Positions 5,857 through 64,000 of a DNA stretch of 64,000 bases are shown here, piece by piece. Numbering within the stretch: position 1 is the stretch's first letter; every line of letters begins with the position of its first letter. Under the pieces are notes generated by a model. It was given only the letters and a program-made list of their open reading frames with translations. It ran no database searches and had not been told where the DNA came from. Both the position numbers and the translations under genes were made by a program. This stretch comes from Pyropia yezoensis (lineage: Eukaryota; Rhodophyta; Bangiophyceae; Bangiales; Bangiaceae): the NCBI GenBank assembly GCA_009829735.1, contig CM020620.1, positions 28,490,951 to 28,554,950 on the forward strand, written 5' to 3'.

Positions 5857-6803
5857 GTTAACGGGTGCAGAGTCCCCCGCGCCCACAAGCCGTCGACGGC
5901 TACGACCCGGTACGGTGGGATAACCGGGACGAGCCAGGGAAGCGCGGGCACCCGCGCTTATGACCACAAACGGCCACGAGCAGCGCCACAAACACGCGGG
6001 TCGACCCACGCCGCACGGGGCTACGAACGCGCCGAACCCAGGCACCTGGGCGGGACGACCCCACCCCCACACACGGGGTAAGCAAGGGGGGTCACCCCCA
6101 ACCGCCCCCACGCAACGCGGGCAGCCCCCGCCCCCCACTCAATCGTCCACACGAGAGGGACCCCCCTACCACCAGGCACCTGGCGGCGGATCCGCTTGCA
6201 CCACCCCTCGGAAAGGGGGGTCGTGAACAAAAACCCGCATCGGGAAATTAACGGTCCGGAAAACGGATCGTGTGTGTACCACACAAAGGGGGGCACCCCC
6301 CTCGGACAACCTCGAAAAGGGGTGTCTGTCGCGACGGGGCGCAAAGCCCCACCCGACGGGTAAACAGTCACGCGACCCACTTACATTCGGTAACCCGAAT
6401 GCAACTCGACCCGAGGACGGGCCGAATCTAAGGGGGGGATATGTAGCAATATGGTTGTCCGTATTGTGACCCTAATATTAGGGGGGCTACTTCTAATCCT
6501 TAACTTCCAATTTGAGAGTCCGAACTGGTCACGGTATCTATAAGTTACGTATGACCAGAGGGACTTGCATCTTGGGGTGGAGAGTAGTTAGTAGTGTCTC
6601 CGAGGGTTTATAACGAGGGGGCCGGTGGCGAATCCACCGCCGGCCAAGGAGAACAACAAACCCCTCCCATTTGGGCTCCCATCTTGGTCCCGTGGCTTGC
6701 GCTCCAAGGACAGCAACCTTGGCCTCCCGGTGACGTTGGTGCCGATCCCCCTTGGTGAGTGTTCCCTGAGAGTGGACGTGCGACGGATTCCTATTGTGCT
6801 ACA

Positions 6804-45084: not shown

Positions 45085-45405
45085 TGTGGCAAAAGCAACT
45101 AGCACACACGGCACCCAAGTTGGGGCGGTGTGCTAGGGCTGCCTCCCGTGTCGGAGGAACCGGAAGAAGTGCAAGTCGCACACACTCTGTCCCTGTTGTG
45201 GGGCAAACCCCCCACGGACAAACAAGAGGATGGTGTGTGGTCCAACAGTTTCTTGGTCGGGACGGGGACGCAGGGCCAAGCCCCGCTGTCCCTCCTCTTA
45301 TCCCCCCAGGGTCCCCTCAGAATCTCGCCACTCAGAATCTCCCACCCCAGCACCTGCCCACCGGGCCACACGAAAATTCAAGACGATAAATGCAGAAAAC
45401 CCTCC

Positions 45406-47373
45406 AATCCAAGTTGGATTTACTACTAAGCTAACTATCCCAAACTTAGGGAATATGGACCCAAATGCAGGGGGAGGAACGGGTCAGGCTAGTGGCCTGC
45501 CGCCCCTTGCATGGCACGTGTTGCCCCCCTACCTGGGGGTCAATACTGCCACACTCCCCTCTCCTCAGTTCCGACCGACCCGGTCGGCCCTGTGAGGGGG
45601 TGCGTAAACGCACGTCTCGGCGCTGGGGGCGCGACTTGCTGTCCCCCATCGAGTACGTAACACGGATGTGGAGGCCGTCACGTTGACCGCCCCTCTCCTC
45701 AAGCTTGCCTACTCGGCAGCTTGCTCTCCTCAGTTCACACTTCACCATCACCACCACCTCCCCTTCACCTTCCACTGGGCCGCCCCACGCTGGGGAGGCC
45801 ACCCGTATACCCACGATCCGAGTCCCCCTCAACTCGAGGCGGGTCTCGTGCTGCGATAGCCAGAGCGTCTCTCCCAAACTTGGGGAGAGCCATGGCGACT
45901 CCGGGAGTGGAGACGGACTCTCTTGACAAGCGCATGGAGGACACCTCCTACGGGGCAGCACCCGCCGGGACTTCCGGCGGGGGCTCCGCGATCGCTCCGG
46001 GGGACGGGACTCCCGCGTCACCCAGCTTTGGGTTGACGGCGGGGTCTCCCCCGGAGGCGGGACAAGTTGTCCCGCGTGAGGCCTTGGGGCGGTGGTTTTA
46101 CCCCGCTTGGCCTCTCTATGAGGAGGGGCTGACTATTCTTTGCTGTGGCCGACTTGACGCAGCGATGGGTCGGGTATGGGACCGCCTACGGGAGAAGTAT
46201 CCCCGTAGGGTCGGGTTCCCTGCCGGCTTCAGGACGGACCAGTTTGCCTTCCTGGACGATGAGGAGGTTGAGGACGTTCAGCGTGCCAAGGCCATGGTGG
46301 ACCGCGGGGGAACTATCCCGGGTCCCGGCGACTTGCCGACCTTCACGTGGGACGCTGTGGCAACTCCCCCACCGTACCTCCACGAGGCGGATCCGCACAC
46401 TCATCACTTTGATGTGCGGAAGGAGAGGGACTTCCGGCGAGGTCCCTACTTGGTGACCTCGGCTCAACTTGAGTTTCCGCAGCAGTCTGCTGCCAGTAAG
46501 GAGCAGTACTATCCGAAGAAGCCCGAGTGGTGGCCTCAAGTTGAGGTCCCCTACGGGTTCCCGGCGTTGCTGCCACGGCTGCTTGACCACTTCGGCTCCG
46601 TCATGTTGACGGCTGCCCCTGAGCACCTGGTGTGGGCCATGTTGGCCACCCAGTGGCTCCTCGAGGTCATGTCGACCTGGGTGTCCTGTGTTCAGCGTTG
46701 GGGGATACTCTGGCATCTCCCCCTCCGGCTCCTCCAAGGTTTGGAACAGCTCACCCCTCAGCTAGTTGCTGAGGGGTGCTCATCAGGACAACTCACTCTA
46801 CTGGAGGAGATGCTCCGGCTCCATAAGTTTATCGAGTGGGAGAGCATTGAGCACAAGTTGCGCCGCCCCACTCGTGGGCCCAAGGACGATGGCGCACTTC
46901 GCCAGTTCGTGTGGGTCGCTCGTGAACTTCACGACGACCGTGTGGTCCTACGAGAGGGGTTGGGCATCGGGGACTACCCGTATGCCCCGGGGGTGGATCG
47001 CCACACTGCGCCACCCGCGGACAAGCCCATAGTTATGGCCGTGCCGTCCTATGATGACCATACGACTCAACCCACTGCGGGGGCCCCAAGTCGGGGTCGC
47101 AGTTACACCCGGGTACCGCCACCTCGGCAAGCCCCTCCGCTTCCTCCTGTTCCTTTTCAACCTCACGGGAACATCCCGATCAGCGTGGCCGTGGAGTCTT
47201 CCACCCCGGTGTCCCCCAACTTGGGGGCCACCGTCCTGACGGTATACCCCAAGTTGGTGTTGCCGCCCACGCCTCTAACCTCAGAGATGATGATCACCAC
47301 GTTGGTGCGCACCATTTCCTGGTTGGCCGCGTCGACCGCAACCCTACAGAATTCCGAGACTCCTCAACTTGAG
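45406..47373. repeat. Dispersed odd-length palindromes with CAA-N-TTG core in family II LTR
   Basis: Perfect palindromes with one central unpaired base: AATCCAAGTTGGATT at 45406-45420, CTCAACTTGAG at 46463-46473, CCTCAAGTTGAGG at 46534-46546, CCCCCAACTTGGGGG at 47213-47227 and CTCAACTTGAG at 47363-47373. A near-perfect one lies at about 45869-45890. Four of the six lie inside the antisense coding frame. The same set recurs in the LTR at 54157-56940. Confidence 0.6.
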
Positions 47374-47835
47374 AAGCGCGTTCGTACAGCAGTGGCGACC
47401 GCGAGTTGCGAGTCGGTGGCGGAGTTTATGCCAGCCGAGTTGGCTCGCATTGGGGCTATTATGCCCCAGCCAGCCCCACTTGGGCGTGGAAAACGTCGCG
47501 CGAGCCGGGCATACTCGCCTCCTCGCCGTCGTCGCCGACACTCGCGGCGCTCTCCTTCCGTATCGGAAGACGAGTTGTCTTACTCCGATTCGGAGTCCTC
47601 TACCCCGTCGGAGACGGAGTCTGTCCAGCGTCTGCGTCGCAAACTTGCGCGCAAGACCAGGCAGAAGAGTGGCCACGGGCGGCGCCACTTGTGCGACCGT
47701 GAGGGGCGCGACGGTTCCGACTTGGAGCCGCCGCCCCCTCCAACAAGTGGAGACCGTTATCGGCGTGGGTCTCGCCGCTCGCCTCCACGTGAGGGCGAGG
47801 GCCGTGGAGTGGGAGAGTCTAGCATGCGTGCCTAG
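45892..47835 (+). CDS. Family II LTR-borne antisense ORF, 647 aa, Arg/Ser-rich tail
   Basis: Open frame inside the LTR, antisense to and convergent with pol; the stops are about 110 bp apart. It starts at an ATG in good context (AGCCATGGCG). Residues 1-65 are Gly/Pro/Ala-rich. About 65-400 look globular, with many Trp and Tyr (GRWFYPAWPLYEEGL, FRRGPYLVTSAQLEF, LLEEMLRLHKFIEWESIE). About 400-530 is a Pro-rich linker. About 535-647 is very basic and Arg/Ser-rich (RRASRAYSPPRRRRRHSRRSPS, then DSESSTPSETES), like SR-type nuclear proteins. No enzymatic motif found. It lies in a copy whose gag-pol is broken, yet it is intact. The role is unknown; regulation of the element or RNA binding in the nucleus are guesses. 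Confidence 0.65.
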   Translation: MATPGVETDSLDKRMEDTSYGAAPAGTSGGGSAIAPGDGTPASPSFGLTAGSPPEAGQVVPREALGRWFYPAWPLYEEGLTILCCGRLDAAMGRVWDRLREKYPRRVGFPAGFRTDQFAFLDDEEVEDVQRAKAMVDRGGTIPGPGDLPTFTWDAVATPPPYLHEADPHTHHFDVRKERDFRRGPYLVTSAQLEFPQQSAASKEQYYPKKPEWWPQVEVPYGFPALLPRLLDHFGSVMLTAAPEHLVWAMLATQWLLEVMSTWVSCVQRWGILWHLPLRLLQGLEQLTPQLVAEGCSSGQLTLLEEMLRLHKFIEWESIEHKLRRPTRGPKDDGALRQFVWVARELHDDRVVLREGLGIGDYPYAPGVDRHTAPPADKPIVMAVPSYDDHTTQPTAGAPSRGRSYTRVPPPRQAPPLPPVPFQPHGNIPISVAVESSTPVSPNLGATVLTVYPKLVLPPTPLTSEMMITTLVRTISWLAASTATLQNSETPQLEKRVRTAVATASCESVAEFMPAELARIGAIMPQPAPLGRGKRRASRAYSPPRRRRRHSRRSPSVSEDELSYSDSESSTPSETESVQRLRRKLARKTRQKSGHGRRHLCDREGRDGSDLEPPPPPTSGDRYRRGSRRSPPREGEGRGVGESSMRA

Positions 47836-47946
47836 TTGGTAGCTGCCTTTGTTGTGAGAGTGTGAGGGTTAGGGCTGTAGTTTAAAGCCACTCTGCGTAC
47901 CAATTCGACCTGAAGCACTCTCTTGGCACTGTTGCTCGGCCTTCCC

Positions 47947-50900
47947 TCACGTTGAGGGAGGGCTGTTAGGGTCTATCTCATTCCGGGCACAGGACGCCCG
48001 GACCTTTTCAGCAGGAAGGTCCTCCACATACTCCCACGTATCATCCTTGGCTTTGTAGCCAAACCAACGCACCCTCAACATGAGGCGGTCAGTGTCTTCA
48101 TCCCATCCGTGGTCGATGAACTTATCGAACACGTACTCCTGCGGGCCCTGTTTGGCCGCAGGCAGTGACGGGAGGCGCCACGCTTCCAAAGCACGCGCCC
48201 AAGCTGAGTCGCCTGCAGACGGTGGTGCAATTTTGACCACGTCCTGTCCGTTCACTGTGCGGACCCCATCGTCACTTTCGATGGTGAAGCGCCGCCCATC
48301 AGTACGAAGGACCTGGTACGGTCCCTTCGTCTGGAATATCAAGTTACCCCCAGTTGGGGTGTGCGAGTGTACCAGCACCCAGTTACCCTGCTCGGGGACA
48401 TGTTTAGCATTGCGCACCTTTTTGTCAAAGGTACGCTTGTAGCGCTTTTGTGCTTTGTCCATCTCAGCCCTGACTTTAGGGATGAGGTTTTCAAGCCTAG
48501 CGGCGAACTCCGCCTTAAACTCAGTAGGAGTAGGCGTACTGCCACCATCCTCCCTAGTTGGGAGCGACCGCCGCACGTCAATAGACCGCACGCGACGGGG
48601 GGTCACAAAAGCGAGGGGTACTTCCCCTGTAGATGAGTGAACCTGCGAATTGTAGGCAGTCGTAAGAATAGAAATGTATTGGTCCCACGTCTTCACGTGC
48701 TCACTCACATAGTGGCGCAGCTGCCTAACAATAGTTTTGTTGAAGCGCTCCACCTGCCAATTAGTTTGTGGGCGGTAGGGGGTGGCATAGTTTGCCTTAA
48801 CCCCCAACATATCCAGCACTCCCTGAAGCAGTACAGACGCAAATTGCGGTCCATTGTCCGATAGTGTACTATCTGGGATGCCATACGCGGCAACCCAGTG
48901 ATCTAGGAAGGCTGACACGACCGACATGGCCGTGATCTCTGCCAGTGGAATCGCTCGCGTAAGCTTCGTGAAGCGGTCACAGATGACCAGGAGGTACTGG
49001 TTGCCCTCCTCGGTCACGGGCAGTGGCCCAAGGATGTCCATCGCCAACGCGGCGAAAGGCTCCTTGGCCGGGAACAATAGCATAGCCGTAGTAGGCCGCC
49101 GTTCCATCAGACGATTCTGTGCACAACTTGTGCAGGCAGCCACCCAACTGTAGATGTCCACCACCATGGACGGCCAGTAGTACCTGGTCCTCAGGGTCTG
49201 GTACAGTTTACTAGACCCCAGGTGTCCACCCGTGGGAGCGTTGTGCTCCCTCTCAAGGATACTGTCCTTGAGGGATGCGGGGACGACAAGTTGTTCGGTC
49301 CCCTGGAATACCCCCCTCCTCATGAGGAGGCCATCGTCTCCCAGAAAGAAACGCGTCTCTACCACTGTATCCAGTATATCCCTCTGCGACTTGCAGAAGG
49401 GATCCTCGGCTTGGGCCTTCACCACCTCGTCCAGGGACAGGGGCAAGTACTTCTTGTTCCCTGGCGCCTCGGGGTTCAACGCCTGACCCGAGCGCGTGAC
49501 TACCCCTACGATGGGGATGTCCTCATCGACTGGGTTAGTGTCCAGCCCCTCCGAAGGTACCCGAGAAAGGCCGCAAGCAAGGGCATGTTGCCTGCCAGGT
49601 CGGTATTCAATGTCAAACTTGAAGGGTGCCAGTCGCACCCTCCACCGGTTGAGACGAGTGTTCGTACAGTCCGTCTTAAAGATGAACTGCAACGCGCGGT
49701 GGTCACAGCGGATGAGGAACTTCTCACCCTCCAGGTAGTGACGAAGTGACGTCATCGCCCACACCACTGCGAGTCCTTCCAACTCGGTGACTCCGTAGTT
49801 CTTCTCGGCCGAGTTCAGCCCCTTACTAAAGTATCCCACCGGCAAGTACTCCTTGTCCGGCTGCTGCTGAAGCAACACACAACCAAGTTGGTCGTAGCTA
49901 GCGTCCACATCCAGGATGTAGTGGCCTCCCAACCTGGGAATAGCCAAGATGGGGGGCTTCAGCAGAAGGTCCCGAAGAGTCTCAAAGGCTTCCGGCTCCA
50001 TCCGACTTGGGGGAGGCAGGTTCTTCGGTAGCGTTGAGCTCACTAGCTCATTCAACGGCTTCGCCACCTTGGCGAAGCCCTTGGTGAAACGTCGGTACAC
50101 GTTACACATCCCGAGGAAGCTCCTCATCTGGGTCTGGGTCCGGGGGTACTGAGCCTTACGAATGGCCCTCAAGTTCTTCTCGTTAACACTGAGACGCCCC
50201 GGATGGACAACATGTCCCAAGTACTCCACCTCTTGAGTAAAGAGGTGGCACTTACTCGCCTTCAGTGACACACCGGCGTCAGCAAGTAGCTTGAACACCT
50301 GGCCAAGATGGCCAATGTGTTCCTCCGGACTTCGGGAGAACACAATGATATCGTCTAGGTACACGAGACAGATCTGCCACCGTACTCCGGCCAGAATCAT
50401 TTCCATAGCGCGCTGGAAAGTTGCCGGCGCGTTACACAGACCAAACGGTAGACGCTTGCACTGGTAGGTACCACAGTGACAGGTAAAGGTAGTTTTATGC
50501 CTGTCCTCCGGGGCAATGGGAATTTGCCAGTACCCCGCGTTACAGTCCAGGGTAGAGAACATGTTTGCCTCCCCCAGAGAGTCCAGACAGTCATCCATCC
50601 TAGTAGGGGATAACTGTCCTTCACCGTGCTCTCGTTGAGCTTACGGTAGTCGATACAAAACCGGGGGGTCCCATCAACTTTGGGGACGATAACCACCGGA
50701 CTCGCCCACTCGGCGTTGCTGGCCTCCATCACATCGAGGGCCTCCATGCGAGCAACTTGCTCCTTGACGAGGGCCCTTGAACGAGGTCCTCCCCTATACG
50801 GTTGTTGGCGTATAGGGGGTGCACCGGGCTTCAACTCGATCCGGTGTTGGGTGGCTCTCATGAGTCCCAATTGACCATCCCACAACTTGTGATATTGGTC

Positions 50901-51930
50901 CAAGAGGCGTTCAACTTGAACCCTCAACCTGGGGGGGACACCCTCCATGTTCACATGGGGTCGAGGAGAGGCGGCCGACTTGGCTTGATGCTTCTCCTTT
51001 CCGGACTTCGGGTCGCTACTTGCGCCCGCGTTGAGGGTGACCGCTACTACCGGTCCCTCGTGTTGGTCGATATAGCCGAACTTGGCTCCCGACTTGAAGT
51101 ACTTGGGCGTCGGGCTCAGGTTCAGCACCTGGATCCTCCACGGGACTTCGGCTTTGGAGTCCATCGTGCCAAGGGCAACATGCTTTTGGTGCTTGCGAGC
51201 AAGACGGGGGTTAGGGTGCACCAACCCGTTCCCCGTAAAATCAGTTACAACATCAACGTGCGCCACCGAGTTGGGGGGCAACGTGACTTTACGGGCTAGA
51301 CGCAGGGTAGCAGTAAACCCTTCCCTCACAGAGCAAACAGGCTTCGACTGTGAGACTGTCACAGGAGCCACAGACTTTCCCTTACCAAGGATGGGATAGT
51401 CTCCCCATTCATCAACTTGACCCAGTACTGAGGGCCACAAATCAAAGGCACTTGTGTAACAACATAAGGGGTACCCAGAAGCAGGGTTACCGATATATTC
51501 TCAACTATGCCATAGGTCACGTCGACCTCATGGGTCCCCAACCTAGTTGGTAGGGTCACGGCACCAACGAAGGGAAGTACCCCACCATTGATGTCAATCA
51601 TATGGTCAGCTTTGGACCTCCAGCGTTGGAGCTTCACCTCGTTTGGTAATAGCGACTTCCGTATCAAGGAGGCTCCTGACCCGGTATCAAGTACGATACG
51701 GGTACAGCATGCACGCCGGGGCAAGTTGCACCCGTCCAGCCACCTGGAAGTTCTCACCCGTCAGCACCGCGATGACCCGACGTGGGGTTACGTTCTTGGG
51801 CAGTCCTGCCCGAGGTGGGCGGACTCCCTTAGGTCGCCGCAGTATCCGGCACGGTTGGTTCGTCCTCCGGGCCCACTTGGCCGAGGCTGCCGTTGTGAGC
51901 TTCGGACGACCAGCCCCAACGGTCATTCGT
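47947..51930 (-). pseudogene. pol: Family II pol, copy II-1 (broken)
   Basis: Protease, RT, RNase H, integrase, GPY/F module and chromodomain in the same order as the intact pol at 56959-60942, nearly identical in sequence. A few breaks interrupt it in the protease-RT part. The segment from RT to chromodomain (47947-50598) is a single open frame. Confidence 0.8.
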
Positions 51931-53656: not shown

Positions 53657-54156
53657 NNNNNNNNNNNNNNNNNNNNNNNNNNNNNNNNNNNNNNNNNNNN
53701 NNNNNNNNNNNNNNNNNNNNNNNNNNNNNNNNNNNNNNNNNNNNNNNNNNNNNNNNNNNNNNNNNNNNNNNNNNNNNNNNNNNNNNNNNNNNNNNNNNNN
53801 NNNNNNNNNNNNNNNNNNNNNNNNNNNNNNNNNNNNNNNNNNNNNNNNNNNNNNNNNNNNNNNNNNNNNNNNNNNNNNNNNNNNNNNNNNNNNNNNNNNN
53901 NNNNNNNNNNNNNNNNNNNNNNNNNNNNNNNNNNNNNNNNNNNNNNNNNNNNNNNNNNNNNNNNNNNNNNNNNNNNNNNNNNNNNNNNNNNNNNNNNNNN
54001 NNNNNNNNNNNNNNNNNNNNNNNNNNNNNNNNNNNNNNNNNNNNNNNNNNNNNNNNNNNNNNNNNNNNNNNNNNNNNNNNNNNNNNNNNNNNNNNNNNNN
54101 NNNNNNNNNNNNNNNNNNNNNNNNNNNNNNNNNNNNNNNNNNNNNNNNNNNNNNNN
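53657..54156. other. Assembly gap, exactly 500 N
   Basis: A round-number gap. Comparison with the second unit places only about 385 bp here: 62675-63004 (gag start, leader, primer-binding site) plus the first 55 or so bases of the LTR. The gap length is therefore nominal. Confidence 0.95.
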
Positions 54157-56940
54157 GCCTCCCGTGTCGGAGGAACCGGAAGAAGTGCAAGTCGCACACA
54201 CTCTGTCCCTGTTGTGGGGCAACCCCCCACGGACAAACAAGAGGATGGTGTGTGGTCCAACAGTTTCTTGGTCGGGACGGGGACGCAGGGCCAAGCCCCG
54301 CTGTCCCTCCTCTTATCCCCCAGGGTCCCCTCAGAATCTCGCCACTCAGAATCTCCCACCCAGCACCTGCCCACCGGGCCACACGAAAATTCAAGACGAT
54401 AAATGCCAGAAAACCCTCCAATCCAAGTTGGATTTACTACTAAGCTAACTATCCCAAACTTAGGGAATATGGACCCAAATGCAGGGGGAGGAACGGGTCA
54501 GGCTAGTGGCCTGCCGCCCCTTGCATGGCACGTGTTGCCCCCCTACCTGGGGGTCAATACTGCCACACTCCCCTCTCCTCAGTTCCGACCGACCCGGTCG
54601 GCCCTGTGAGGGGGTGCGTAAACGCACGTCTCGGCGCTGGGGGCGCGACTTGCTGTCCCCCATCGAGTACGTAACACGGATGTGGAGGCCGTCACGTTGA
54701 CCGCCCCTCTCCTCAAGCTTGCCTACTCGGCAGCTTGCTCTCCTCAGTTCACACTTCACCATCACCACCACCTCCCCTTCACCTTCCACTGGGCCGCCCC
54801 ACGCTGGGAGGCCACCCGTATACCCACGATCCGAGTCCCCCTCAACTCGAGGCGGGTCTCGTGCTGCGATAGCCAGAGCGTCTCTCCCAAACTTGGGAGA
54901 GCCATGGCGACTCCGGGAGTGGAGACGGACTCTCTTGACAAGCGCATGGAGGACACCTCCTACGGGGCAGCACCCGCCGGGACTTCCGGCGGGGGCTCCG
55001 CGATCGCTCCGGGGGACGGGACTCCCGCGTCACCCAGCTTTGGGTTGACGGCGGGGTCTCCCCCGGAGGCGGGACAAGTTGTCCCGCGTGAGGCCTTGGG
55101 GCGGTGGTTTTACCCCGCTTGGCCTCTCTATGAGGAGGGGCTGACTATTCTTTGCTGTGGCCGACTTGACGCAGCGATGGGTCGGGTATGGGACCGCCTA
55201 CGGGAGAAGTATCCCCGTAGGGTCGGGTTCCCTGCCGGCTTCAGGACGGACCAGTTTGCCTTCCTGGACGATGAGGAGGTTGAGGACGTTCAGCGTGCCA
55301 AGGCCATGGTGGACCGCGGGGGAACTATCCCGGGTCCCGGCGACTTGCCGACCTTCACGTGGGACGCTGTGGCAACTCCCCCACCGTACCTCCACGAGGC
55401 GGATCCGCACACTCATCACTTTGATGTGCGGAAGGAGAGGGACTTCCGGCGAGGTCCCTACTTGGTGACCTCGGCTCAACTTGAGTTTCCGCAGCAGTCT
55501 GCTGCCAGTAAGGAGCAGTACTATCCGAAGAAGCCCGAGTGGTGGCCTCAAGTTGAGGTCCCCTACGGGTTCCCGGCGTTGCTGCCACGGCTGCTTGACC
55601 ACTTCGGCTCCGTCATGTTGACGGCTGCCCCTGAGCACCTGGTGTGGGCCATGTTGGCCACCCAGTGGCTCCTCGAGGTCATGTCGACCTGGGTGTCCTG
55701 TGTTCAGCGTTGGGGGATACTCTGGCATCTCCCCCTCCGGCTCCTCCAAGGTTTGGAACAGCTCACCCCTCAGCTAGTTGCTGAGGGGTGCTCATCAGGA
55801 CAACTCACTCTACTGGAGGAGATGCTCCGGCTCCATAAGTTTATCGAGTGGGAGAGCATTGAGCACAAGTTGCGCCGCCCCACTCGTGGGCCCAAGGACG
55901 ATGGCGCACTTCGCCAGTTCGTGTGGGTCGCTCGTGAACTTCACGACGACCGTGTGGTCCTACGAGAGGGGTTGGGCATCGGGGACTACCCGTATGCCCC
56001 GGGGGTGGATCGCCACACTGCGCCACCCGCGGACAAGCCCATAGTTATGGCCGTGCCGTCCTATGATGACCATACGACTCAACCCACTGCGGGGGCCCCA
56101 AGTCGGGGTCGCAGTTACACCCGGGTACCGCCACCTCGGCAAGCCCCTCCGCTTCCTCCTGTTCCTTTTCAACCTCACGGGAACATCCCGATCAGCGTGG
56201 CCGTGGAGTCTTCCACCCCGGTGTCCCCCAACTTGGGGGCCACCGTCCTGACGGTATACCCCAAGTTGGTGTTGCCGCCCACGCCTCTAACCTCAGAGAT
56301 GATGATCACCACGTTGGTGCGCACCATTTCCTGGTTGGCCGCGTCGACCGCAACCCTACAGAATTCCGAGACTCCTCAACTTGAGAAGCGCGTTCGTACA
56401 GCAGTGGCGACCGCGAGTTGCGAGTCGGTGGCGGAGTTTATGCCAGCCGAGTTGGCTCGCATTGGGGCTATTATGCCCCAGCCAGCCCCACTTGGGCGTG
56501 GAAAACGTCGCGCGAGCCGGGCATACTCGCCTCCTCGCCGTCGTCGCCGACACTCGCGGCGCTCTCCTTCCGTATCGGAAGACGAGTTGTCTTACTCCGA
56601 TTCGGAGTCCTCTACCCCGTCGGAGACGGAGTCTGTCCAGCGTCTGCGTCGCAAACTTGCGCGCAAGACCAGGCAGAAGAGTGGCCACGGGCGGCGCCAC
56701 TTGTGCGACCGTGAGGGGCGCGACGGTTCCGACTTGGAGCCGCCGCCCCCTCCAACAAGTGGAGACCGTTATCGGCGTGGGTCTCGCCGCTCGCCTCCAC
56801 GTGAGGGCGAGGGCCGTGGAGTGGGAGAGTCTAGCATGCGTGCCTAGTTGGTAGCTGCCTTTGTTGTGAGAGTGTGAGGGTTAGGGCTGTAGTTTAAAGC
56901 CACTCTGCGTACCAATTCGACCTGAAGCACTCTCTTGGCA
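54157..56940 (-). repeat. LTR between the two tandem family II units
   Basis: Nearly identical to 45085-47928. It serves as 3' LTR of the second unit and, by position, as 5' LTR of the first. About 55 bases of its left end are hidden in the gap. It ends TCTCTTGGCA at 56940. Confidence 0.75.
54904..56847 (+). CDS. Family II LTR-borne antisense ORF, 647 aa (second copy)
   Basis: Same protein as at 45892-47835, apparently identical in sequence. Intact. Convergent with the pol at 56959-60942. If the two tandem units are one locus assembled twice, this is the same gene as the first. Confidence 0.65.
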   Translation: MATPGVETDSLDKRMEDTSYGAAPAGTSGGGSAIAPGDGTPASPSFGLTAGSPPEAGQVVPREALGRWFYPAWPLYEEGLTILCCGRLDAAMGRVWDRLREKYPRRVGFPAGFRTDQFAFLDDEEVEDVQRAKAMVDRGGTIPGPGDLPTFTWDAVATPPPYLHEADPHTHHFDVRKERDFRRGPYLVTSAQLEFPQQSAASKEQYYPKKPEWWPQVEVPYGFPALLPRLLDHFGSVMLTAAPEHLVWAMLATQWLLEVMSTWVSCVQRWGILWHLPLRLLQGLEQLTPQLVAEGCSSGQLTLLEEMLRLHKFIEWESIEHKLRRPTRGPKDDGALRQFVWVARELHDDRVVLREGLGIGDYPYAPGVDRHTAPPADKPIVMAVPSYDDHTTQPTAGAPSRGRSYTRVPPPRQAPPLPPVPFQPHGNIPISVAVESSTPVSPNLGATVLTVYPKLVLPPTPLTSEMMITTLVRTISWLAASTATLQNSETPQLEKRVRTAVATASCESVAEFMPAELARIGAIMPQPAPLGRGKRRASRAYSPPRRRRRHSRRSPSVSEDELSYSDSESSTPSETESVQRLRRKLARKTRQKSGHGRRHLCDREGRDGSDLEPPPPPTSGDRYRRGSRRSPPREGEGRGVGESSMRA

Positions 56941-56958
56941 CTGTTGCTCGGCCTTCCC

Positions 56959-59900
56959 TCACGTTGAGGGAGGGCTGTTAGGGTCTATCTCATTCCGGGC
57001 ACAGGACGCCCGGACCTTTTCAGCAGGAAGGTCCTCCACATACTCCCACGTATCATCCTTGGCTTTGTAGCCAAACCAACGCACCCTCAACATGAGGCGG
57101 TCAGTGTCTTCATCCCATCCGTGGTCGATGAACTTATCGAACACGTACTCCTGCGGGCCCTGTTTGGCCGCAGGCAGTGACGGGAGGCGCCACGCTTCCA
57201 AAGCACGCGCCCAAGCTGAGTCGCCTGCAGACGGTGGTGCAATTTTGACCACGTCCTGTCCGTTCACTGTGCGGACCCCATCGTCACTTTCGATGGTGAA
57301 GCGCCGCCCATCAGTACGAAGGACCTGGTACGGTCCCTTCGTCTGGAATATCAAGTTACCCCCAGTTGGGGTGTGCGAGTGTACCAGCACCCAGTTACCC
57401 TGCTCGGGGACATGTTTAGCATTGCGCACCTTTTTGTCAAAGGTACGCTTGTAGCGCTTTTGTGCTTTGTCCATCTCAGCCCTGACTTTAGGGATGAGGT
57501 TTTCAAGCCTAGCGGCGAACTCCGCCTTAAACTCAGTAGGAGTAGGCGTACTGCCACCATCCTCCCTAGTTGGGAGCGACCGCCGCACGTCAATAGACCG
57601 CACGCGACGGGGGGTCACAAAAGCGAGGGGTACTTCCCCTGTAGATGAGTGAACCTGCGAATTGTAGGCAGTCGTAAGAATAGAAATGTATTGGTCCCAC
57701 GTCTTCACGTGCTCACTCACATAGTGGCGCAGCTGCCTAACAATAGTTTTGTTGAAGCGCTCCACCTGCCAATTAGTTTGTGGGCGGTAGGGGGTGGCAT
57801 AGTTTGCCTTAACCCCCAACATATCCAGCACTCCCTGAAGCAGTACAGACGCAAATTGCGGTCCATTGTCCGATAGTGTACTATCTGGGATGCCATACGC
57901 GGCAACCCAGTGATCTAGGAAGGCTGACACGACCGACATGGCCGTGATCTCTGCCAGTGGAATCGCTCGCGTAAGCTTCGTGAAGCGGTCACAGATGACC
58001 AGGAGGTACTGGTTGCCCTCCTCGGTCACGGGCAGTGGCCCAAGGATGTCCATCGCCAACGCGGCGAAAGGCTCCTTGGCCGGGAACAATAGCATAGCCG
58101 TAGTAGGCCGCCGTTCCATCAGACGATTCTGTGCACAACTTGTGCAGGCAGCCACCCAACTGTAGATGTCCACCACCATGGACGGCCAGTAGTACCTGGT
58201 CCTCAGGGTCTGGTACAGTTTACTAGACCCCAGGTGTCCACCCGTGGGAGCGTTGTGCTCCCTCTCAAGGATACTGTCCTTGAGGGATGCGGGGACGACA
58301 AGTTGTTCGGTCCCCTGGAATACCCCCCTCCTCATGAGGAGGCCATCGTCTCCCAGAAAGAAACGCGTCTCTACCACTGTATCCAGTATATCCCTCTGCG
58401 ACTTGCAGAAGGGATCCTCGGCTTGGGCCTTCACCACCTCGTCCAGGGACAGGGGCAAGTACTTCTTGTTCCCTGGCGCCTCGGGGTTCAACGCCTGACC
58501 CGAGCGCGTGACTACCCCTACGATGGGGATGTCCTCATCGACTGGGTTAGTGTCCAGCCCCTCCGAAGGTACCCGAGAAAGGCCGCAAGCAAGGGCATGT
58601 TGCCTGCCAGGTCGGTATTCAATGTCAAACTTGAAGGGTGCCAGTCGCACCCTCCACCGGTTGAGACGAGTGTTCGTACAGTCCGTCTTAAAGATGAACT
58701 GCAACGCGCGGTGGTCACAGCGGATGAGGAACTTCTCACCCTCCAGGTAGTGACGAAGTGACGTCATCGCCCACACCACTGCGAGTCCTTCCAACTCGGT
58801 GACTCCGTAGTTCTTCTCGGCCGAGTTCAGCCCCTTACTAAAGTATCCCACCGGCAAGTACTCCTTGTCCGGCTGCTGCTGAAGCAACACACAACCAAGT
58901 TGGTCGTAGCTAGCGTCCACATCCAGGATGTAGTGGCCTCCCAACCTGGGAATAGCCAAGATGGGGGGCTTCAGCAGAAGGTCCCGAAGAGTCTCAAAGG
59001 CTTCCGGCTCCATCCGACTTGGGGGAGGCAGGTTCTTCGGTAGCGTTGAGCTCACTAGCTCATTCAACGGCTTCGCCACCTTGGCGAAGCCCTTGGTGAA
59101 ACGTCGGTACACGTTACACATCCCGAGGAAGCTCCTCATCTGGGTCTGGGTCCGGGGGTACTGAGCCTTACGAATGGCCCTCAAGTTCTTCTCGTTAACA
59201 CTGAGACGCCCCGGATGGACAACATGTCCCAAGTACTCCACCTCTTGAGTAAAGAGGTGGCACTTACTCGCCTTCAGTGACACACCGGCGTCAGCAAGTA
59301 GCTTGAACACCTGGCCAAGATGGCCAATGTGTTCCTCCGGACTTCGGGAGAACACAATGATATCGTCTAGGTACACGAGACAGATCTGCCACCGTACTCC
59401 GGCCAGAATCATTTCCATAGCGCGCTGGAAAGTTGCCGGCGCGTTACACAGACCAAACGGTAGACGCTTGCACTGGTAGGTACCACAGTGACAGGTAAAG
59501 GTAGTTTTATGCCTGTCCTCCGGGGCAATGGGAATTTGCCAGTACCCCGCGTTACAGTCCAGGGTAGAGAACATGTTTGCCTCCCCCAGAGAGTCCAGAC
59601 AGTCATCCATCCTAGGTAGGGGATAACTGTCCTTCACCGTGCTCTCGTTGAGCTTACGGTAGTCGATACAAAACCGGGGGGTCCCATCAACTTTGGGGAC
59701 GATAACCACCGGACTCGCCCACTCGGCGTTGCTGGCCTCCATCACATCGAGGGCCTCCATGCGAGCAACTTGCTCCTTGACGAGGGCCCTTGAACGAGGT
59801 CCTCCCCTATACGGTTGTTGGCGTATAGGGGGTGCACCGGGCTTCAACTCGATCCGGTGTTGGGTGGCTCTCATGAGTCCCAATTGACCATCCCACAACT

Positions 59901-60942
59901 TGTGATATTGGTCCAAGAGGCGTTCAACTTGAACCCTCAACCTGGGGGGGACACCCTCCATGTTCACATGGGGTCGAGGAGAGGCGGCCGACTTGGCTTG
60001 ATGCTTCTCCTTTCCGGACTTCGGGTCGCTACTTGCGCCCGCGTTGAGGGTGACCGCTACTACCGGTCCCTCGTGTTGGTCGATATAGCCGAACTTGGCT
60101 CCCGACTTGAAGTACTTGGGCGTCGGGCTCAGGTTCAGCACCTGGATCCTCCACGGGACTTCGGCTTTGGAGTCCATCGTGCCAAGGGCAACATGCTTTT
60201 GGTGCTTGCGAGCAAGACGGGGGTTAGGGTGCACCAACCCGTTCCCCGTAAAATCAGTTACAACATCAACGTGCGCCACCGAGTTGGGGGGCAACGTGAC
60301 TTTACGGGCTAGACGCAGGGTAGCAGTAAACCCTTCCCTCACAGAGCAAACAGGCTTCGACTGTGAGACTGTCACAGGAGCCACAGACTTTCCCTTACCA
60401 AGGATGGGGATAGTCTCCCCATTCATCAACTTGACCCAGTACTGAGGGCCACAAATCAAAGGCACTTGTGTAACAACATAAGGGGTACCCAGAAGCAGGG
60501 TTACCGATATATTCTCAACTATGCCATAGGTCACGTCGACCTCATGGGTCCCCAACCTAGTTGGTAGGGTCACGGCACCAACGAAGGGAAGTACCCCACC
60601 ATTGATGTCAATCATATGGTCAGCTTTGGACCTCCAGCGTTGGAGCTTCACCTCGTTTGGTAATAGCGACTTCCGTATCAAGGAGGCTCCTGACCCGGTA
60701 TCAAGTACGATACGGGTACAGCATGCACGGCCGGGGGCAAGTTGCACCCGTCCAGCCACCTGGAAGTTCTCACCCGTCAGCACCGCGATGACCCGACGTG
60801 GGGTTACGTTCTTGGGCAGTCCTGCCCGAGGTGGGCGGACTCCCTTAGGTCGCCGCAGTATCCGGCACGGTTGGTTCGTCCTCCGGGCCCACTTGGCCGA
60901 GGCTGCCGTTGTGAGCTTCGGACGACCAGCCCCAACGGTCAT
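56959..60942 (-). CDS. pol: Family II pol: protease, RT, RNase H, integrase, chromodomain, 1327 aa
   Basis: One open frame. In order: retropepsin (VLDTGSGASLI, about residue 77), RT ([26 protein letters not shown]), RNase H (YILDVDASYDQLG, RCDHRALQFIF), HHCC zinc domain (HNAPTGGH...CTSCAQ), integrase core (DILGPLP, SDNGPQF, WQVERFN), GPY/F module (TKGPYQVL) and chromodomain (LRVRWFGYKAKDDTWEYVEDLP), which in chromoviruses directs integration to marked chromatin. The start ATG overlaps the gag stop as ATGA (60939-60942), suggesting coupled termination and restart, or frameshifting, between gag and pol. The stop codon lies in a purine-rich stretch (GTGAGGGAAGG) that may be the polypurine tract. 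Confidence 0.9.
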   Translation of the reverse strand: MTVGAGRPKLTTAASAKWARRTNQPCRILRRPKGVRPPRAGLPKNVTPRRVIAVLTGENFQVAGRVQLAPGRACCTRIVLDTGSGASLIRKSLLPNEVKLQRWRSKADHMIDINGGVLPFVGAVTLPTRLGTHEVDVTYGIVENISVTLLLGTPYVVTQVPLICGPQYWVKLMNGETIPILGKGKSVAPVTVSQSKPVCSVREGFTATLRLARKVTLPPNSVAHVDVVTDFTGNGLVHPNPRLARKHQKHVALGTMDSKAEVPWRIQVLNLSPTPKYFKSGAKFGYIDQHEGPVVAVTLNAGASSDPKSGKEKHQAKSAASPRPHVNMEGVPPRLRVQVERLLDQYHKLWDGQLGLMRATQHRIELKPGAPPIRQQPYRGGPRSRALVKEQVARMEALDVMEASNAEWASPVVIVPKVDGTPRFCIDYRKLNESTVKDSYPLPRMDDCLDSLGEANMFSTLDCNAGYWQIPIAPEDRHKTTFTCHCGTYQCKRLPFGLCNAPATFQRAMEMILAGVRWQICLVYLDDIIVFSRSPEEHIGHLGQVFKLLADAGVSLKASKCHLFTQEVEYLGHVVHPGRLSVNEKNLRAIRKAQYPRTQTQMRSFLGMCNVYRRFTKGFAKVAKPLNELVSSTLPKNLPPPSRMEPEAFETLRDLLLKPPILAIPRLGGHYILDVDASYDQLGCVLLQQQPDKEYLPVGYFSKGLNSAEKNYGVTELEGLAVVWAMTSLRHYLEGEKFLIRCDHRALQFIFKTDCTNTRLNRWRVRLAPFKFDIEYRPGRQHALACGLSRVPSEGLDTNPVDEDIPIVGVVTRSGQALNPEAPGNKKYLPLSLDEVVKAQAEDPFCKSQRDILDTVVETRFFLGDDGLLMRRGVFQGTEQLVVPASLKDSILEREHNAPTGGHLGSSKLYQTLRTRYYWPSMVVDIYSWVAACTSCAQNRLMERRPTTAMLLFPAKEPFAALAMDILGPLPVTEEGNQYLLVICDRFTKLTRAIPLAEITAMSVVSAFLDHWVAAYGIPDSTLSDNGPQFASVLLQGVLDMLGVKANYATPYRPQTNWQVERFNKTIVRQLRHYVSEHVKTWDQYISILTTAYNSQVHSSTGEVPLAFVTPRRVRSIDVRRSLPTREDGGSTPTPTEFKAEFAARLENLIPKVRAEMDKAQKRYKRTFDKKVRNAKHVPEQGNWVLVHSHTPTGGNLIFQTKGPYQVLRTDGRRFTIESDDGVRTVNGQDVVKIAPPSAGDSAWARALEAWRLPSLPAAKQGPQEYVFDKFIDHGWDEDTDRLMLRVRWFGYKAKDDTWEYVEDLPAEKVRASCARNEIDPNSPPST

Positions 60943-62885
60943 TCGTTTCCCGCCGACTTGGCGTCCGAATCTGAGGGCGGGGAGGAAGACGACGAGTCCG
61001 AAGACGACGTGTCTGCCTCCTCCGCCGAGGGTGTGGCGACCGCGACGACCGGTCGAGACCCACCCTCGCGGCGTGAACGTACTTCGTTCGTAGCCGACTT
61101 CTTACTCGCATTCCTAACAAGTCGTTGGATGCGTTTACTCAACTTGGGGCAATCATATGCCCAGTGTCCATCGGAGTTGCAGTTCCAACACCGATGGTCT
61201 GTTCCGGGTGGGGTCTTCCCAACTGGGGAAGACGAAGGGATACCCTGGGAAGTTCCCACGGCAGCTACCACCCTCTCCTTGCGGATTCGGCGCGCCTCTC
61301 TCAACTCTCTGGCCTGGCGCGCCTCCTTCCGTTCCTTGGCCAACTCGGCCTGACGCTCCTGGCGTTGTTCCTCCCGTAACTTGCGGTAGGCCTCGCCTCT
61401 GCGGTAGGCGAACCTAGCTAACTCGGCCAGGGTCGCCCGGGCAGTGTTATGCTCCCGGGTCTCCATCCGGACTGACCAATGGAGTCTCTCCACAAACCGA
61501 CTCTTCACCACAGCTTGTGGATGAAGAAACCCACAAAGATTGTTGAGCTTACGGACTCGCTCCGCAAAGGACAACTCGTCCTCCGCCTCTTCCTGATGGG
61601 CTTGCGTAAACTCCTCGACTTGAGAAGCCAACGCTGCCTCATCAACCATGGCTCTCAACAACCAGTTGACGAGCTCCAAATAGGACGTCACCTCCCCAGC
61701 GCCTCCACTTGAGGAGCTGGGCATGACGGACATAAGTTCTGTCCGCAGGTCTCCCTTCTTAAACTCCTGTAGCATGTAAAAAGCCATGCCTTCACTTATG
61801 GCATTGTCGTCACAGGCTTTTGTGAAACGACGTAGGAACTCAAAGACACGGAGGGGGGGAGTTCCGTCCCACTCCGCTTTGTGCCCAAAAGAATGAAGTG
61901 CATTCTTCTTGGCACGGCCCATGGCTCGGGCCTGGTCAGGACCATACGCCACCGACTTGTTGTGGAGGGGGTAGGTCTCACAGTCAAAGATCCTCTGGTA
62001 GACCGGGTTGGCTACCTGGATCTTGGGCGGCACCTCACGTTGAGGGAACAGCCGCTGTGGCACTGGGGTAAGTTCACCCTCAGTGCCTGTAGTCCGGCGC
62101 GGCGCACTTGGTGTAGCCGCCGGCGTTTCCGGGGGGAACTCCCCCGTGAAGGGCGTACGCCCCACCGAGTATGGTGTGGCTCCCTCGTTGAGAGTCACAG
62201 GTGTCGCCCCCAGTTCGGGGCGACCAGAGATAGGCGTAAGGGGGGATTCCCCCTGCGCCTGCGGGCTCGAAAGCCCCAATCCGGTTTGGACATTAAGGCC
62301 ATCTGGCAAACTCGCCACAATCTGATTCAGAATAGTATTCGTCATCGTGACCACCAGGTCCGGCAAAGTCTGTTGCAACACATTGGTCGCCTCCCGACGG
62401 ACAGTTTCCGCGAGGAGTGGATTGAAGACTCCAGTTGAGTCTCGGTCCGCCTCCGGGAGTCCACCTGAGGGGTAAGCACGGTCCTCAAGGGTCTCAAACG
62501 GGGGCATGGGCGGGAGCCCATCGCCGACCAACGGAGGTCCACCGTCCTCCGAAAGCCTAGTTGGCGACGACTCCAAGCCAAAGCTGGCTCCAACCCGAGT
62601 GGAACCCGCGGGGACAGTCCTCACCCCTTGGGACGTTCCCGTTGAGTATACCACACGGTGGCCAGACTTCGGCCCACCCACATCAGAAGTGTCACCCGAA
62701 TGGACTCCCGACTGAGTCGGGGTGGCCTGTTGCCCGCCCGTACTTCCAGTCCTGCTGGCTAGAGGGACCTCTAGTCCCTCTGCGACCCCAGGTAAACCCA
62801 CCTGTGTCTCACCAGTATTCAAAGGCACTGAAGTACGTGCGTCACCCGTGTACTCCCCGGACGACGGGGGGTCCAAGCTAGCCAT
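60939..62885 (-). CDS. gag: Family II gag with zinc knuckle, 648 aa
   Basis: Capsid/nucleocapsid precursor. I chose the first ATG, at 62885 (MASLDPPSSG). The N-terminal 290 residues are Pro/Ser/Gly-rich and probably disordered. A globular capsid-like region follows (FLRRFTKACDDNAISEGMAF, about 340, to about 480), then a highly charged helix rich in Arg, Glu and Ala (about 490-545). Last comes a CCHC zinc knuckle, CWNCNSDGHWAYDC, near residue 565, and an acidic Ser-rich end. Gag proteins of this size are common in chromoviruses. The frame is complete and abuts pol. Confidence 0.85.
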   Translation of the reverse strand: MASLDPPSSGEYTGDARTSVPLNTGETQVGLPGVAEGLEVPLASRTGSTGGQQATPTQSGVHSGDTSDVGGPKSGHRVVYSTGTSQGVRTVPAGSTRVGASFGLESSPTRLSEDGGPPLVGDGLPPMPPFETLEDRAYPSGGLPEADRDSTGVFNPLLAETVRREATNVLQQTLPDLVVTMTNTILNQIVASLPDGLNVQTGLGLSSPQAQGESPLTPISGRPELGATPVTLNEGATPYSVGRTPFTGEFPPETPAATPSAPRRTTGTEGELTPVPQRLFPQREVPPKIQVANPVYQRIFDCETYPLHNKSVAYGPDQARAMGRAKKNALHSFGHKAEWDGTPPLRVFEFLRRFTKACDDNAISEGMAFYMLQEFKKGDLRTELMSVMPSSSSGGAGEVTSYLELVNWLLRAMVDEAALASQVEEFTQAHQEEAEDELSFAERVRKLNNLCGFLHPQAVVKSRFVERLHWSVRMETREHNTARATLAELARFAYRRGEAYRKLREEQRQERQAELAKERKEARQARELREARRIRKERVVAAVGTSQGIPSSSPVGKTPPGTDHRCWNCNSDGHWAYDCPKLSKRIQRLVRNASKKSATNEVRSRREGGSRPVVAVATPSAEEADTSSSDSSSSSPPSDSDAKSAGNE

Positions 62886-62985
62886 GTTGGCTGACGATCC
62901 GTATGACACGGTCCAAGACCACCGTTCCTCTGAGACAGAGGGCCCCCTACACCCGGGTGCACCCGGAGGTAAAGTTTACCTCTAT

Positions 62986-63002
62986 CCCCTGCTGCTCCAC
63001 CA
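62986..63002 (-). promoter_or_regulatory. Candidate primer-binding site of family II
   Basis: On the minus strand TGGTGGAGCAGCAGGGG begins two bases after the LTR end (63005). It starts TGG, complementary to a tRNA 3' CCA, with a GC-rich continuation that would pair with an acceptor stem reading GGAGCAG on its 5' side. The tRNA is not identified. The placement supports the LTR boundary at 63005. Confidence 0.55.
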
Positions 63003-63004
63003 AA

Positions 63005-64000
63005 TGTGGCAAAAACCACTTGCACACACGGCACCCAAGCTGAGGCGGTGTGCTAGGGCTGCCTCCCGTGTCGGGGGAACCGGAAGAAGTGCAAGTCGCA
63101 CACACTCTGTCCCTGTTGTGGGGCGAACCCCCCACGGACAAACAAGAGGATGGTGTGTGGTCCAACAGTTTCTTGGTCGGGACGGGGACGCAGGGCCAAG
63201 CCCCGCTGTCCCTCCCCTTATCCTCCCAGGGTCCCCTCAGAATCTCGCCACTCAGAATCTCCCACCCCAGCACCTGCCCACCGGGCCACACGAAAATTCA
63301 AGACGATAAATGCAGAAAACCCTCCAATCCAAGTTGGATTTACTACTAAGCTAACTATCCCAAACTTAGGGAATATGGACCCAAATGCAGGGGGAGGAAC
63401 GGATCAGGCTAGTGGCCTGCCGCCCCTTGCATGGCACGTGTTGCCCCCCTACCTGGGGGTCAATACTGCCACAAGTTCCGCCCGACCCGGTCGGCCCTGT
63501 GAAGGGGTGCGTAAACGCACGTCTCGGCGTTGGGGGCGCGACTTGCTGTCCCCCTCCCCTTGATTACGTAACGCGAATGTGGAGGCGGTCACGTTGACCG
63601 CCCCTCTCCTTAAGCTTGCCCACTCAGCAGCTTGCTCTCCTCGGTTCACACTTCACCATTACCACTACCTCCCCTTCACCCTGCACGGGGCCGCCTCACA
63701 CTGGGGAGGCGACCCGTCTACCCACGATCCGAGTCCCCCTCAACTCGAGGCGGGTCTCGTGCCGCTGTAGCCAGGGCATCTCTCCCCTACTTGGGGAGAG
63801 CCATGGCGACTCCGGGAGAGGAGACGGACTCACTCAACGAGCGTATGGAGGACACCTCCTATGGTGCGGCGCCCGCCGGGACTTCCGGCGGGGGCTCCGC
63901 GATCGCTCCGGGGGATGGGACTCCCGCGTCACCCGGCTTTGGGTTGACGGCGGGGTCTCCCCCGGAGGCGGGACACGTTGTCCCGCGTGAGGCCTTGGGG
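63005..64000 (-). repeat. 5' LTR of family II copy II-2 (partial, runs off the window)
   Basis: In plus-strand reading it starts TGTGGCAAAAACC next to the primer-binding site and continues, colinear with the other family II LTRs, to the window end. It already includes the first 66 codons of the antisense frame, so that frame lies in the 5' LTR too. Sequence is closer to the LTR at 37346 at several positions than to the LTR at 54157. Confidence 0.75.
63803..64000 (+). CDS. Family II LTR-borne antisense ORF, first 66 codons (runs off the window)
   Basis: Starts MATPGEETDSLNERMED and stays open to the edge. It is head-to-head with gag, the two ATGs being 918 bp apart, so in the 5' LTR the antisense gene points out of the element. 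Thirteen of 198 bases differ from the frame at 54904, several of them silent. Confidence 0.6.
   Translation, partial: MATPGEETDSLNERMEDTSYGAAPAGTSGGGSAIAPGDGTPASPGFGLTAGSPPEAGHVVPREALG

What the first reader, a model, noticed from the sequence alone, without database searches (positions are those of the whole stretch)
45085..64000. Family II LTRs carry a conserved 647-aa gene in antisense
The frame (45892-47835, 54904-56847, start again at 63803) lies between TG...CA ends of about 2.85 kb LTRs, opposite to gag-pol. The LTR next to the primer-binding site at 63005 already contains its start. In the unlinked old copy, pieces of the frame flank the internal region on both sides (6804-8227 and 11726-14228). 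So each element carries two copies, one head-to-head with gag and one tail-to-tail with pol. Antisense extra ORFs are known in plant Ty3/gypsy elements (Grande, Retand), but mostly internal; a full-length gene inside the LTR is unusual.
Basis: partly seen in the sequence, partly recalled or inferred. Interest (0 to 1): 0.8.

Follow-up and report, generated by a model that had tools for sequence, protein, structure and literature searches.

The report
Antisense gene in red-alga retrotransposons
A nori seaweed's jumping genes carry an extra protein gene that reads backwards between pol and the terminal repeat that follows it (not inside the repeat, as first thought), and selection kept its protein while the elements multiplied.

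Summary
The frames are real (45892-47835, 54904-56847, third start 63803). The claim that they lie inside 2.85-kb LTRs is wrong. Other genomic copies show an LTR of about 469 bp (window 45085-45553, 63005-63473), with a polypurine tract at the inner edge of the 3' LTR and exact 5-bp target duplications in 9 of 13 LTR pairs checked. The 647-aa gene is internal, between pol and the 3' LTR. Genome-wide, 910 frame-start words face 1347 LTR/primer-site junction words; a gene in both LTRs would need about two per junction.
The protein was under strong purifying selection while elements multiplied: variants shared between copies give omega 0.12 in copies chosen by LTR (0.05 in autonomous copies, where pol gives 0.18); private variants give 0.73. 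A second Ty3/gypsy family in the window has the same layout and a homologous antisense protein (25% identity over 189 aa), with relatives in Pyropia vietnamensis at 45-53%. The host is inferred to be Pyropia yezoensis.
This is the known class of antisense accessory ORFs (Grande, Retand, Boty), with a protein that matches no Pfam family. Its function is inferred, not shown.

The parts
45085..45553 (-). 3' LTR, 469 bp, of array unit 1 (TGTGGCA...TGCCACA on +)
   Evidence: LTR pairs in other copies; alignment with 63005-63473
45554..45566 (-). polypurine tract directly inside the 3' LTR (purine-rich on minus strand)
   Evidence: read from the sequence; the word spanning LTR end and PPT start occurs 1385 times genome-wide with up to 2 mismatches
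45567..45891 (+). spacer between LTR/PPT and the antisense gene; inferred site of its promoter or leader
   Evidence: position only; no transcript data
45892..47835 (+). antisense accessory gene, 647 aa (unit 1)
   Evidence: selection
47947..51500 (-). pol of unit 1, split into frames of 897 and 367 aa (not intact)
53657..54156 (.). 500-N assembly gap hiding most of the junction between units 1 and 2
54157..54567 (-). visible part of the LTR between units 1 and 2
   Evidence: matches the 5' LTRs of other copies
54904..56847 (+). antisense accessory gene, 647 aa (unit 2)
56959..61101 (-). pol of unit 2, open 1380 aa: RT, RNase H, integrase, weak chromodomain match
60939..62975 (-). gag of unit 2, open 678 aa with CCHC zinc knuckle
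62984..63002 (-). putative primer-binding site, starting TGG two bases after the 5' LTR; the matching tRNA gene was not found
   Evidence: junction word 1347 times genome-wide; tRNA not found
63005..63473 (-). LTR, 469 bp, between units 2 and 3; in the alignment the 13-bp PPT is missing on its far side
63803..64000 (+). start of the third unit's antisense gene, interrupted beyond the window (L039:1059)
38156..40099 (+). older related copy of the gene, no indels but three premature stops
11821..13408 (-). antisense gene remains in the old diverged copy (about 72-75% identical)
6804..7423 (-). further fragment of the gene start beside an old LTR
3..2930 (+). pol of family X (second Ty3/gypsy family)
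3409..5856 (-). family X antisense gene, 815 aa from the Met used here
6442..6803 (+). family X 3' LTR, 362 bp (TGTAGCA...TGCTACA), purine tract just before it; no 5' LTR was seen to pair with it
   Evidence: read from the sequence
41736..44105 (+). family X antisense gene, second copy, 789 aa
40783..41144 (-). family X 3' LTR, second copy, 362 bp
   Evidence: read from the sequence

Best explanation
This is a Ty3/gypsy LTR retrotransposon family of (by inference) Pyropia yezoensis: LTRs of about 469 bp and a complete element of about 9.4 kb. Besides gag and pol on one strand it carries one accessory protein gene on the other strand, between the end of pol and the 3' LTR. SHOWN: the position and LTR boundaries, an open frame in most LTR-chosen copies, purifying selection on the protein during element multiplication, and a homologous protein in the same position in a second family. 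INFERRED: the gene is transcribed on its own from the 3' LTR/spacer side. The protein (variable N-terminus, conserved core, probably helical C-terminal part, in this family an Arg/Ser-rich basic tail) acts in the nucleus as an element-encoded regulator of the element's expression, RNA fate or silencing, as proposed for Grande gene23 and the Retand antisense proteins. The 'gene in the LTR' appearance comes from a tandem array whose units share single LTRs.
For: LTR of 469-470 bp in 7 of 10 autonomous 5' ends and about 469 bp at both ends of 6 of 6 derivatives; exact 5-bp duplications in 9 of 13 pairs; PPT at the 469-bp edge. Genome word counts (up to 2 mismatches): LTR-primer site 1347, PPT-LTR 1385, frame start 910. 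Copies chosen by LTR, not by the frame: 14 of 22 intact. Selection: 20 LTR-chosen copies, shared variants 11 N: 37 S, omega 0.12, private 159 N: 90 S, omega 0.73; all 37 gap-free copies, shared 17 N: 89 S, omega 0.08. 14 autonomous copies: frame 0.05, pol 0.18 on shared variants. Family X: homologous protein, two window copies with omega 0.05-0.3 in the middle of the protein, P. vietnamensis relatives at 45-53%. Basic Arg/Ser tail: 27% K+R in residues 531-647.
Against: No transcript, promoter or protein evidence was available. The nuclear role rests on composition and analogy; family X lacks the Arg/Ser tail. Structure models are too poor to interpret as folds (mean pLDDT 30.7 and 35.7; only a C-terminal helical stretch of X reaches 70-83). 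No Pfam or PDB match for the 647-aa protein. LTR ends were unresolved in 3 of 10 autonomous copies (L033, L034, L035), and 4 of 13 pairs lack an exact duplication. No tRNA gene matching the primer site was found. Protein-ranked copies give lower private omega (0.43-0.5) because they were ranked by protein similarity.
Confidence: 0.8

Rival explanations
1. One reading: 2.85-kb LTRs that each contain the gene, so two gene copies per element.
For: In the window the sequence after each LTR continues into the frame on both sides of gag-pol.
Against: Other copies end at the 469-bp LTR, most with flanking duplications; PPT at that edge; 910 frame starts against 1347 LTR-primer-site junctions.
Confidence: 0.02
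2. The frame is only an antisense regulatory RNA or a chance open frame in GC-rich DNA; the protein does not matter.
For: No expression data; antisense non-coding RNAs exist in some LTR elements (review PMC7264820, passages read).
Against: Shared variants are mostly synonymous in this frame (17 N: 89 S, 89 of 106 at third positions); the other frames do not show it except the antisense frame whose third positions coincide; protein-level homology between families and species.
Confidence: 0.05
3. The protein acts on particle assembly or reverse transcription in the cytoplasm, like a structural accessory factor, not as a nuclear regulator.
For: Constraint at least as strong as in the part of pol examined; no nuclear evidence here.
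Against: No similarity to the gag of the same element (profile of the family against gag, hhalign probability 0.1%); basic Arg/Ser tail, and a nuclear analogue, Grande gene23 (PMC7264820).
Confidence: 0.25
4. The protein is a captured host gene kept for the host, not for the element.
For: Many intact copies; NCBI gene models in P. vietnamensis whose neighbourhood could not be seen.
Against: Private variants in LTR-chosen copies are near neutral (omega 0.73), so single copies are not protected; the three protein searches returned only a few sequences, those with names all from Pyropia. Whether any of these lies outside an element is unknown.
Confidence: 0.04

Closest known systems
Grande (maize) gene23, RIRE2 (rice): antisense accessory ORF between pol and 3' LTR
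   Same: Same place and orientation; conserved in most copies; regulatory role proposed, gene23 nuclear (PMC7264820, passages and section 5 read)
   Different: Protein without a Pfam match; red algal host; own promoter not tested here; sequences not compared
Retand lineage antisense ORFs with TRP28 domain (PF04195)
   Different: No TRP28 match; Retand elements were found in Eudicotyledons and Liliopsida only; here the pol-LTR region is about 2.4 kb, and the one weak short tandem repeat reported lies in the LTR, against 2.9-6.6 kb often with repeat arrays
Boty (Botrytis, Sclerotinia) antisense ORF
   Same: Shows the class exists outside plants (PMC7264820 section 5)
   Different: Fungal; sequences not compared here
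Family X in this window (pol 3-2930; antisense genes 3409-5856 and 41736-44105)
   Same: Same layout; homologous core, 25% identity over 189 aa, 48 bits
   Different: 362-bp LTR, longer N-terminus, no Arg/Ser tail
Genes within or from LTRs (MMTV sag, HTLV HBZ; recalled, no call)
   Same: Accessory protein; HBZ is antisense
   Different: This frame does not overlap the LTR

Membership tests
Antisense accessory ORF class (aORF-3R: Grande, RIRE2, Retand, Boty) | ORF between pol and 3' LTR, antisense to gag-pol | tested here: met
Antisense accessory ORF class (aORF-3R: Grande, RIRE2, Retand, Boty) | Present in most copies and conserved like other element proteins | tested here: met
   14 of 22 LTR-chosen copies intact; omega 0.05 vs pol 0.18 on shared variants of 14 autonomous copies
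Antisense accessory ORF class (aORF-3R: Grande, RIRE2, Retand, Boty) | Separate antisense transcript from its own promoter | not testable with these tools
   no RNA data held
Antisense accessory ORF class (aORF-3R: Grande, RIRE2, Retand, Boty) | Nuclear protein (shown for Grande gene23) | not testable with these tools
   only composition: Arg/Ser-rich basic tail
Retand lineage | TRP28 domain (PF04195) in the antisense protein | tested here: not met
   no Pfam family at E up to 1 for the 647-aa protein
Retand lineage | Non-chromovirus pol (no chromodomain) | tested here: inconclusive
   Chromo PF00385 at E 0.0026, 18.1 bits, below the 25.1 cut-off; no RT tree was made
Ty3/gypsy LTR retrotransposon | pol order RT - RNase H - integrase | tested here: met
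Ty3/gypsy LTR retrotransposon | LTRs with TG...CA ends, PPT, short target duplication | tested here: met
   (9 of 13 exact 5-bp duplications)
Ty3/gypsy LTR retrotransposon | primer-binding site complementary to a host tRNA | tested here: inconclusive
   TGG-starting site beside the 5' LTR, but the four places matching a T-loop-like pattern are primer sites of related LTR-element sequence, not tRNA genes, and a second tRNA-shaped pattern found none

The most novel reading that the evidence does not exclude
The antisense protein binds the short palindromes (CAASTTG and other brief inverted repeats) spread through its own element and protects or activates it, a retrotransposon counterpart of element-encoded anti-silencing proteins that recognise motifs dispersed in their own DNA (the VANDAL/VANC comparison is recalled, no call). 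CAASTTG occurs 18 times in 45085-53656, about 1 expected, and once in 16200-34700, about 2 expected; in the frame 7 against 1.0 after synonymous-codon shuffling, in pol 8 against 1.3, in gag 1 against 0.4. None of the 37 copies varies at the 17 third positions inside the motif (about 5 variants expected), but private variants are missing there too, so low mutability may explain it. Against: family X, whose protein is homologous, lacks the motif (0, 0 and 1 occurrences), and hairpin-stem sites are not clearly more conserved than others.
Probability: 0.06. Interest if true: 0.8.

Novelty: new member of a known kind. Interest (0 to 1): 0.45.

Why it matters
Antisense accessory ORFs downstream of pol are described for plant elements and for fungal Boty, with no settled function (PMC7264820). 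Two red algal families sharing one homologous antisense protein, one of them with relatives in a second Pyropia species, would show that the arrangement recurs far from land plants. With some 900 frame starts in a genome of about 107 Mb, selection on such a gene can be measured well. It also corrects the idea that the gene sits in the LTR.

Tried and rejected
Rejected: gene inside a 2.85-kb LTR.

Rejected as a clean proof: the deletion derivatives D1 (L010, L019, L022, L027, L028; about 5.0 kb, gag and most of pol lost, antisense gene intact in 5 of 5, but these came from the protein-ranked list) at first looked like a test of selection without gag-pol (shared variants 4 N: 54 S, omega 0.03). 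Pairwise differences show recombination (L010-L022: frame 10, pol remnant 15; L019-L022: frame 54, remnant 1), and the pol remnant is also still open in all five. The low omega may therefore be inherited from autonomous copies.

Rejected: identification of the primer tRNA. Four places matching a T-loop-like pattern turned out to be primer sites of related LTR-element sequence, with no tRNA found by ARAGORN; a wider tRNA-shaped pattern found nothing.

Led nowhere: Pfam (no family at E up to 1) and PDB (no hit) for the 647-aa protein; profile comparison with gag; structure prediction with 10 sequences, twice, too poor for a fold search; profile search of the protein database, which returned only P0005. 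Paper searches on Pyropia, Porphyra or red algal LTR elements with antisense or extra ORFs gave no title or abstract start describing this gene; of the listed papers only PMC11963269 and PMC7264820 were opened, in passages, and PMC7423979 was opened by DOI.

Bias noted: the 68 copies scored (of 3600 first-look candidates) and 55 (of 24638) are those most like the query protein (64 of 68 and 43 of 55 without stops), so the 22 LTR-chosen copies were used for intactness. LTR similarity itself favours young copies. Five of 42 fetched frames (L050, L051, L053, L059, L060) were dropped from the variant counts because of gaps or truncation.
Full report
Setting. The window lies in an assembly of 107.5 Mb whose three large contigs measure 43.59, 34.33 and 29.39 Mb. 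The published Pyropia yezoensis genome has scaffolds of 43.6, 34.3 and 29.4 Mbp and 48% repeats, mainly LTR elements (PMC7423979, four passages read). The host is therefore taken to be P. yezoensis; this is an inference from sizes.

The observation. The frames exist as described. The minus strand carries gag with a zinc knuckle and pol with RT, RNase H, integrase and a weak chromodomain match. Unit 1 (from 45141) and unit 2 (54157-62674) are 99.8% identical and are separated by a 500-N gap. Pol is open in unit 2 but split in unit 1.

The LTR is short. Twenty stretches with family copies were fetched, and the 5' ends of ten autonomous copies separately. In 7 of 10 the 5' copy of the repeat ends at the equivalent of 63473 and pairs with the element's own 3' end over 469-470 bp; L033 and L034 hold other family sequence there and L035 gave no match. 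Six deletion derivatives have both LTRs in one locus, again about 469 bp. Of these 13 pairs, 9 have an exact 5-bp target duplication; L010 has it displaced, L028 agrees at four of five bases, L011 and L024 have none. The inner edge at 45554 is a purine tract. The site after the 5' LTR starts with TGG, as primer sites do, but no matching tRNA gene was found: the four places with a T-loop-like match are primer sites of related element sequence, and a tRNA-shaped pattern gave nothing. Word counts with up to two mismatches give 1347 LTR-primer-site junctions, 1385 PPT-LTR junctions, 2004 matches for a word inside the LTR and 910 for the frame start. A gene in both LTRs would give about two starts per junction. 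The words differ in how well they are conserved, so the ratio is approximate.

The window holds a head-to-tail array in which neighbouring units share one LTR, so on both sides of gag-pol an LTR is followed by the frame. Such arrays occur elsewhere: PPT-side and primer-side words lie about 468 bp apart on the same strand, for example at C1:111601 and 112070 and at C1:120511 and 120979 (which list only the first 100 places each). From the visible edges of unit 2 an isolated element measures about 9.4 kb.

Selection. The tool ranks copies by similarity to the query protein, so a second set was picked by LTR similarity only (22 of the 40 listed places fetched). Of the 22, 14 are intact, 3 have one stop, 3 have frameshifts and 2 are truncated. 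Variants were counted against expectations built from the observed substitution types. In 20 LTR-chosen gap-free copies (17 of the 22 plus L013, L025 and L026, which are in the same LTR list), variants seen once give omega 0.73 (159 N, 90 S, 3 stops) and variants shared by two or more copies 0.12 (11 N, 37 S). In all 37 copies the figures are 0.83 and 0.08; in the 20 protein-ranked ones 0.5 and 0.05. In 14 autonomous copies shared variants give 0.05 for the frame and 0.18 for the part of pol covered; private ones 0.43 and 0.69. On shared variants the control frames are above 1 except the antisense frame whose third positions coincide (0.17-0.31). The pattern is that of an element gene: constrained while copies are made, largely released after insertion. 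The decayed window copy 38156-40099 has three stops.

A family of antisense proteins. A second family (X) has pol at 3-2930, an antisense frame at 5856-3409 and a 362-bp LTR at 6442-6803 read from its ends and purine tract, without a 5' partner; its second copy is at 41736-44105. The X and 647-aa proteins align at 25% identity over 189 residues (48 bits, E 1e-9 for the single comparison). Between the two X copies omega is 0.37 overall: 0.40 and 0.59 in the first two sixths, 0.30, 0.05 and 0.19 in the next three, 0.44 in the last. X has at least 55 near-complete copies in the genome and relatives in P. vietnamensis at 45-53% identity, named only 'hypothetical protein'. For the 647-aa protein only one relative was found (P0005, 94%). 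Whether the P. vietnamensis genes lie beside pol was not testable.

Mechanism. Shown: position, boundaries, selection, homology. Inferred: own transcription from the LTR/spacer side (start contexts GCCATGG, ACCATGT and AACATGT) and a nuclear regulatory role, argued from the Arg/Ser-rich tail (27% K+R) and from Grande gene23 and the Retand proteins (PMC7264820 and PMC11963269, passages read). I give the nuclear-regulator step about 0.4. The derivatives that keep the gene but not gag-pol (junction in 40 scored places of 2573 candidates) do not decide the matter, because they recombine with other copies.

Compared with what is known. The position and orientation are those of the aORF-3R class. 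The protein has no TRP28 or other Pfam match. The finding is a new member of a known kind, in red algae, with a protein family of its own. I found no description of it in the papers searched, which cover open-licence papers only and were mostly seen as listings.

A side result. Element DNA is rich in short perfect inverted repeats. Against synonymous-codon shuffles, inverted 6-mers 3-9 bp apart number 18 vs 5.3 in the frame, 29 vs 8.1 in pol, 21 vs 5.5 in gag, 35 vs 8.1 and 30 vs 8.8 in the X genes and 37 vs 6.5 in X pol. Mirror, direct and complement repeats show no comparable general excess, though one X gene has complement 25 vs 8.5 and direct 23 vs 12.1. Three other frames of the window give inverted 9 vs 5.2, 9 vs 9.5 and 14 vs 8.5. 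Old copies have fewer in aligned parts (8 vs 25, 7 vs 15, 11 vs 15), the less decayed copy at 37345 nearly as many (27 vs 32). Changes on both sides that keep pairing are somewhat more frequent than independence predicts, but numbers are small, and within the 647 family stem third positions are not clearly more conserved (12 shared variants in 112 sites vs 77 in 536). Template switching during reverse transcription and selection for RNA structure are both open.

Re-reading the calls changed one claim: the tRNA match of the primer site, which I had taken, did not hold.

Noticed in passing
window 1-6800, 40800-64000 (LTR-element DNA): Excess of short perfect inverted repeats (about 3-6 times expectation under synonymous shuffling) in gag, pol and antisense genes of both families, little or none in three other frames; fewer in old copies.
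   Followed up: partly
window 45085-53656: Palindrome CAASTTG 18 times in one element, once in 18.5 kb of other DNA; not enriched in family X.
   Followed up: partly
window 45085-64000; G000:C1:111601/112070 and 120511/120979: Head-to-tail arrays of the element with single shared LTRs, also elsewhere in the genome.
   Followed up: partly
L010, L019, L022, L027, L028: Deletion derivative of about 5.0 kb with one common junction that lost gag and most of pol but kept the antisense gene; junction at 40 scored places; signs of recombination with other copies.
   Followed up: partly
L013: A different deletion derivative, about 4.4 kb, with an inverted piece of pol beside the kept antisense gene.
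   Followed up: no
G000:C1:364744/366101, 563940/565296, 726205/727560: LTR-primer-site words about 1356 bp apart on one strand, suggesting a small tandem derivative with no room for the antisense gene.
   Followed up: no
L062-L065: Related LTR-element leaders with the same primer-site word but different LTR starts, pointing to further families using the same primer.
   Followed up: no
window 53657-54156: 500-N gap between two 99.8% identical units; pol is split in unit 1 and open in unit 2, so the unit count here may be an assembly estimate.
   Followed up: no
window 63474; L039:1059: The third unit lacks the 13-bp polypurine tract beside its LTR and its antisense gene is cut by a family X element.
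   Followed up: partly
window 28783-31035: DDE transposase frame (Plant_tran PF04827, E 7e-60) on the minus strand.
   Followed up: no
window 18015-20429: Frame of 804 aa with weak AAA/NACHT-type P-loop matches, below the curated cut-offs.
   Followed up: no
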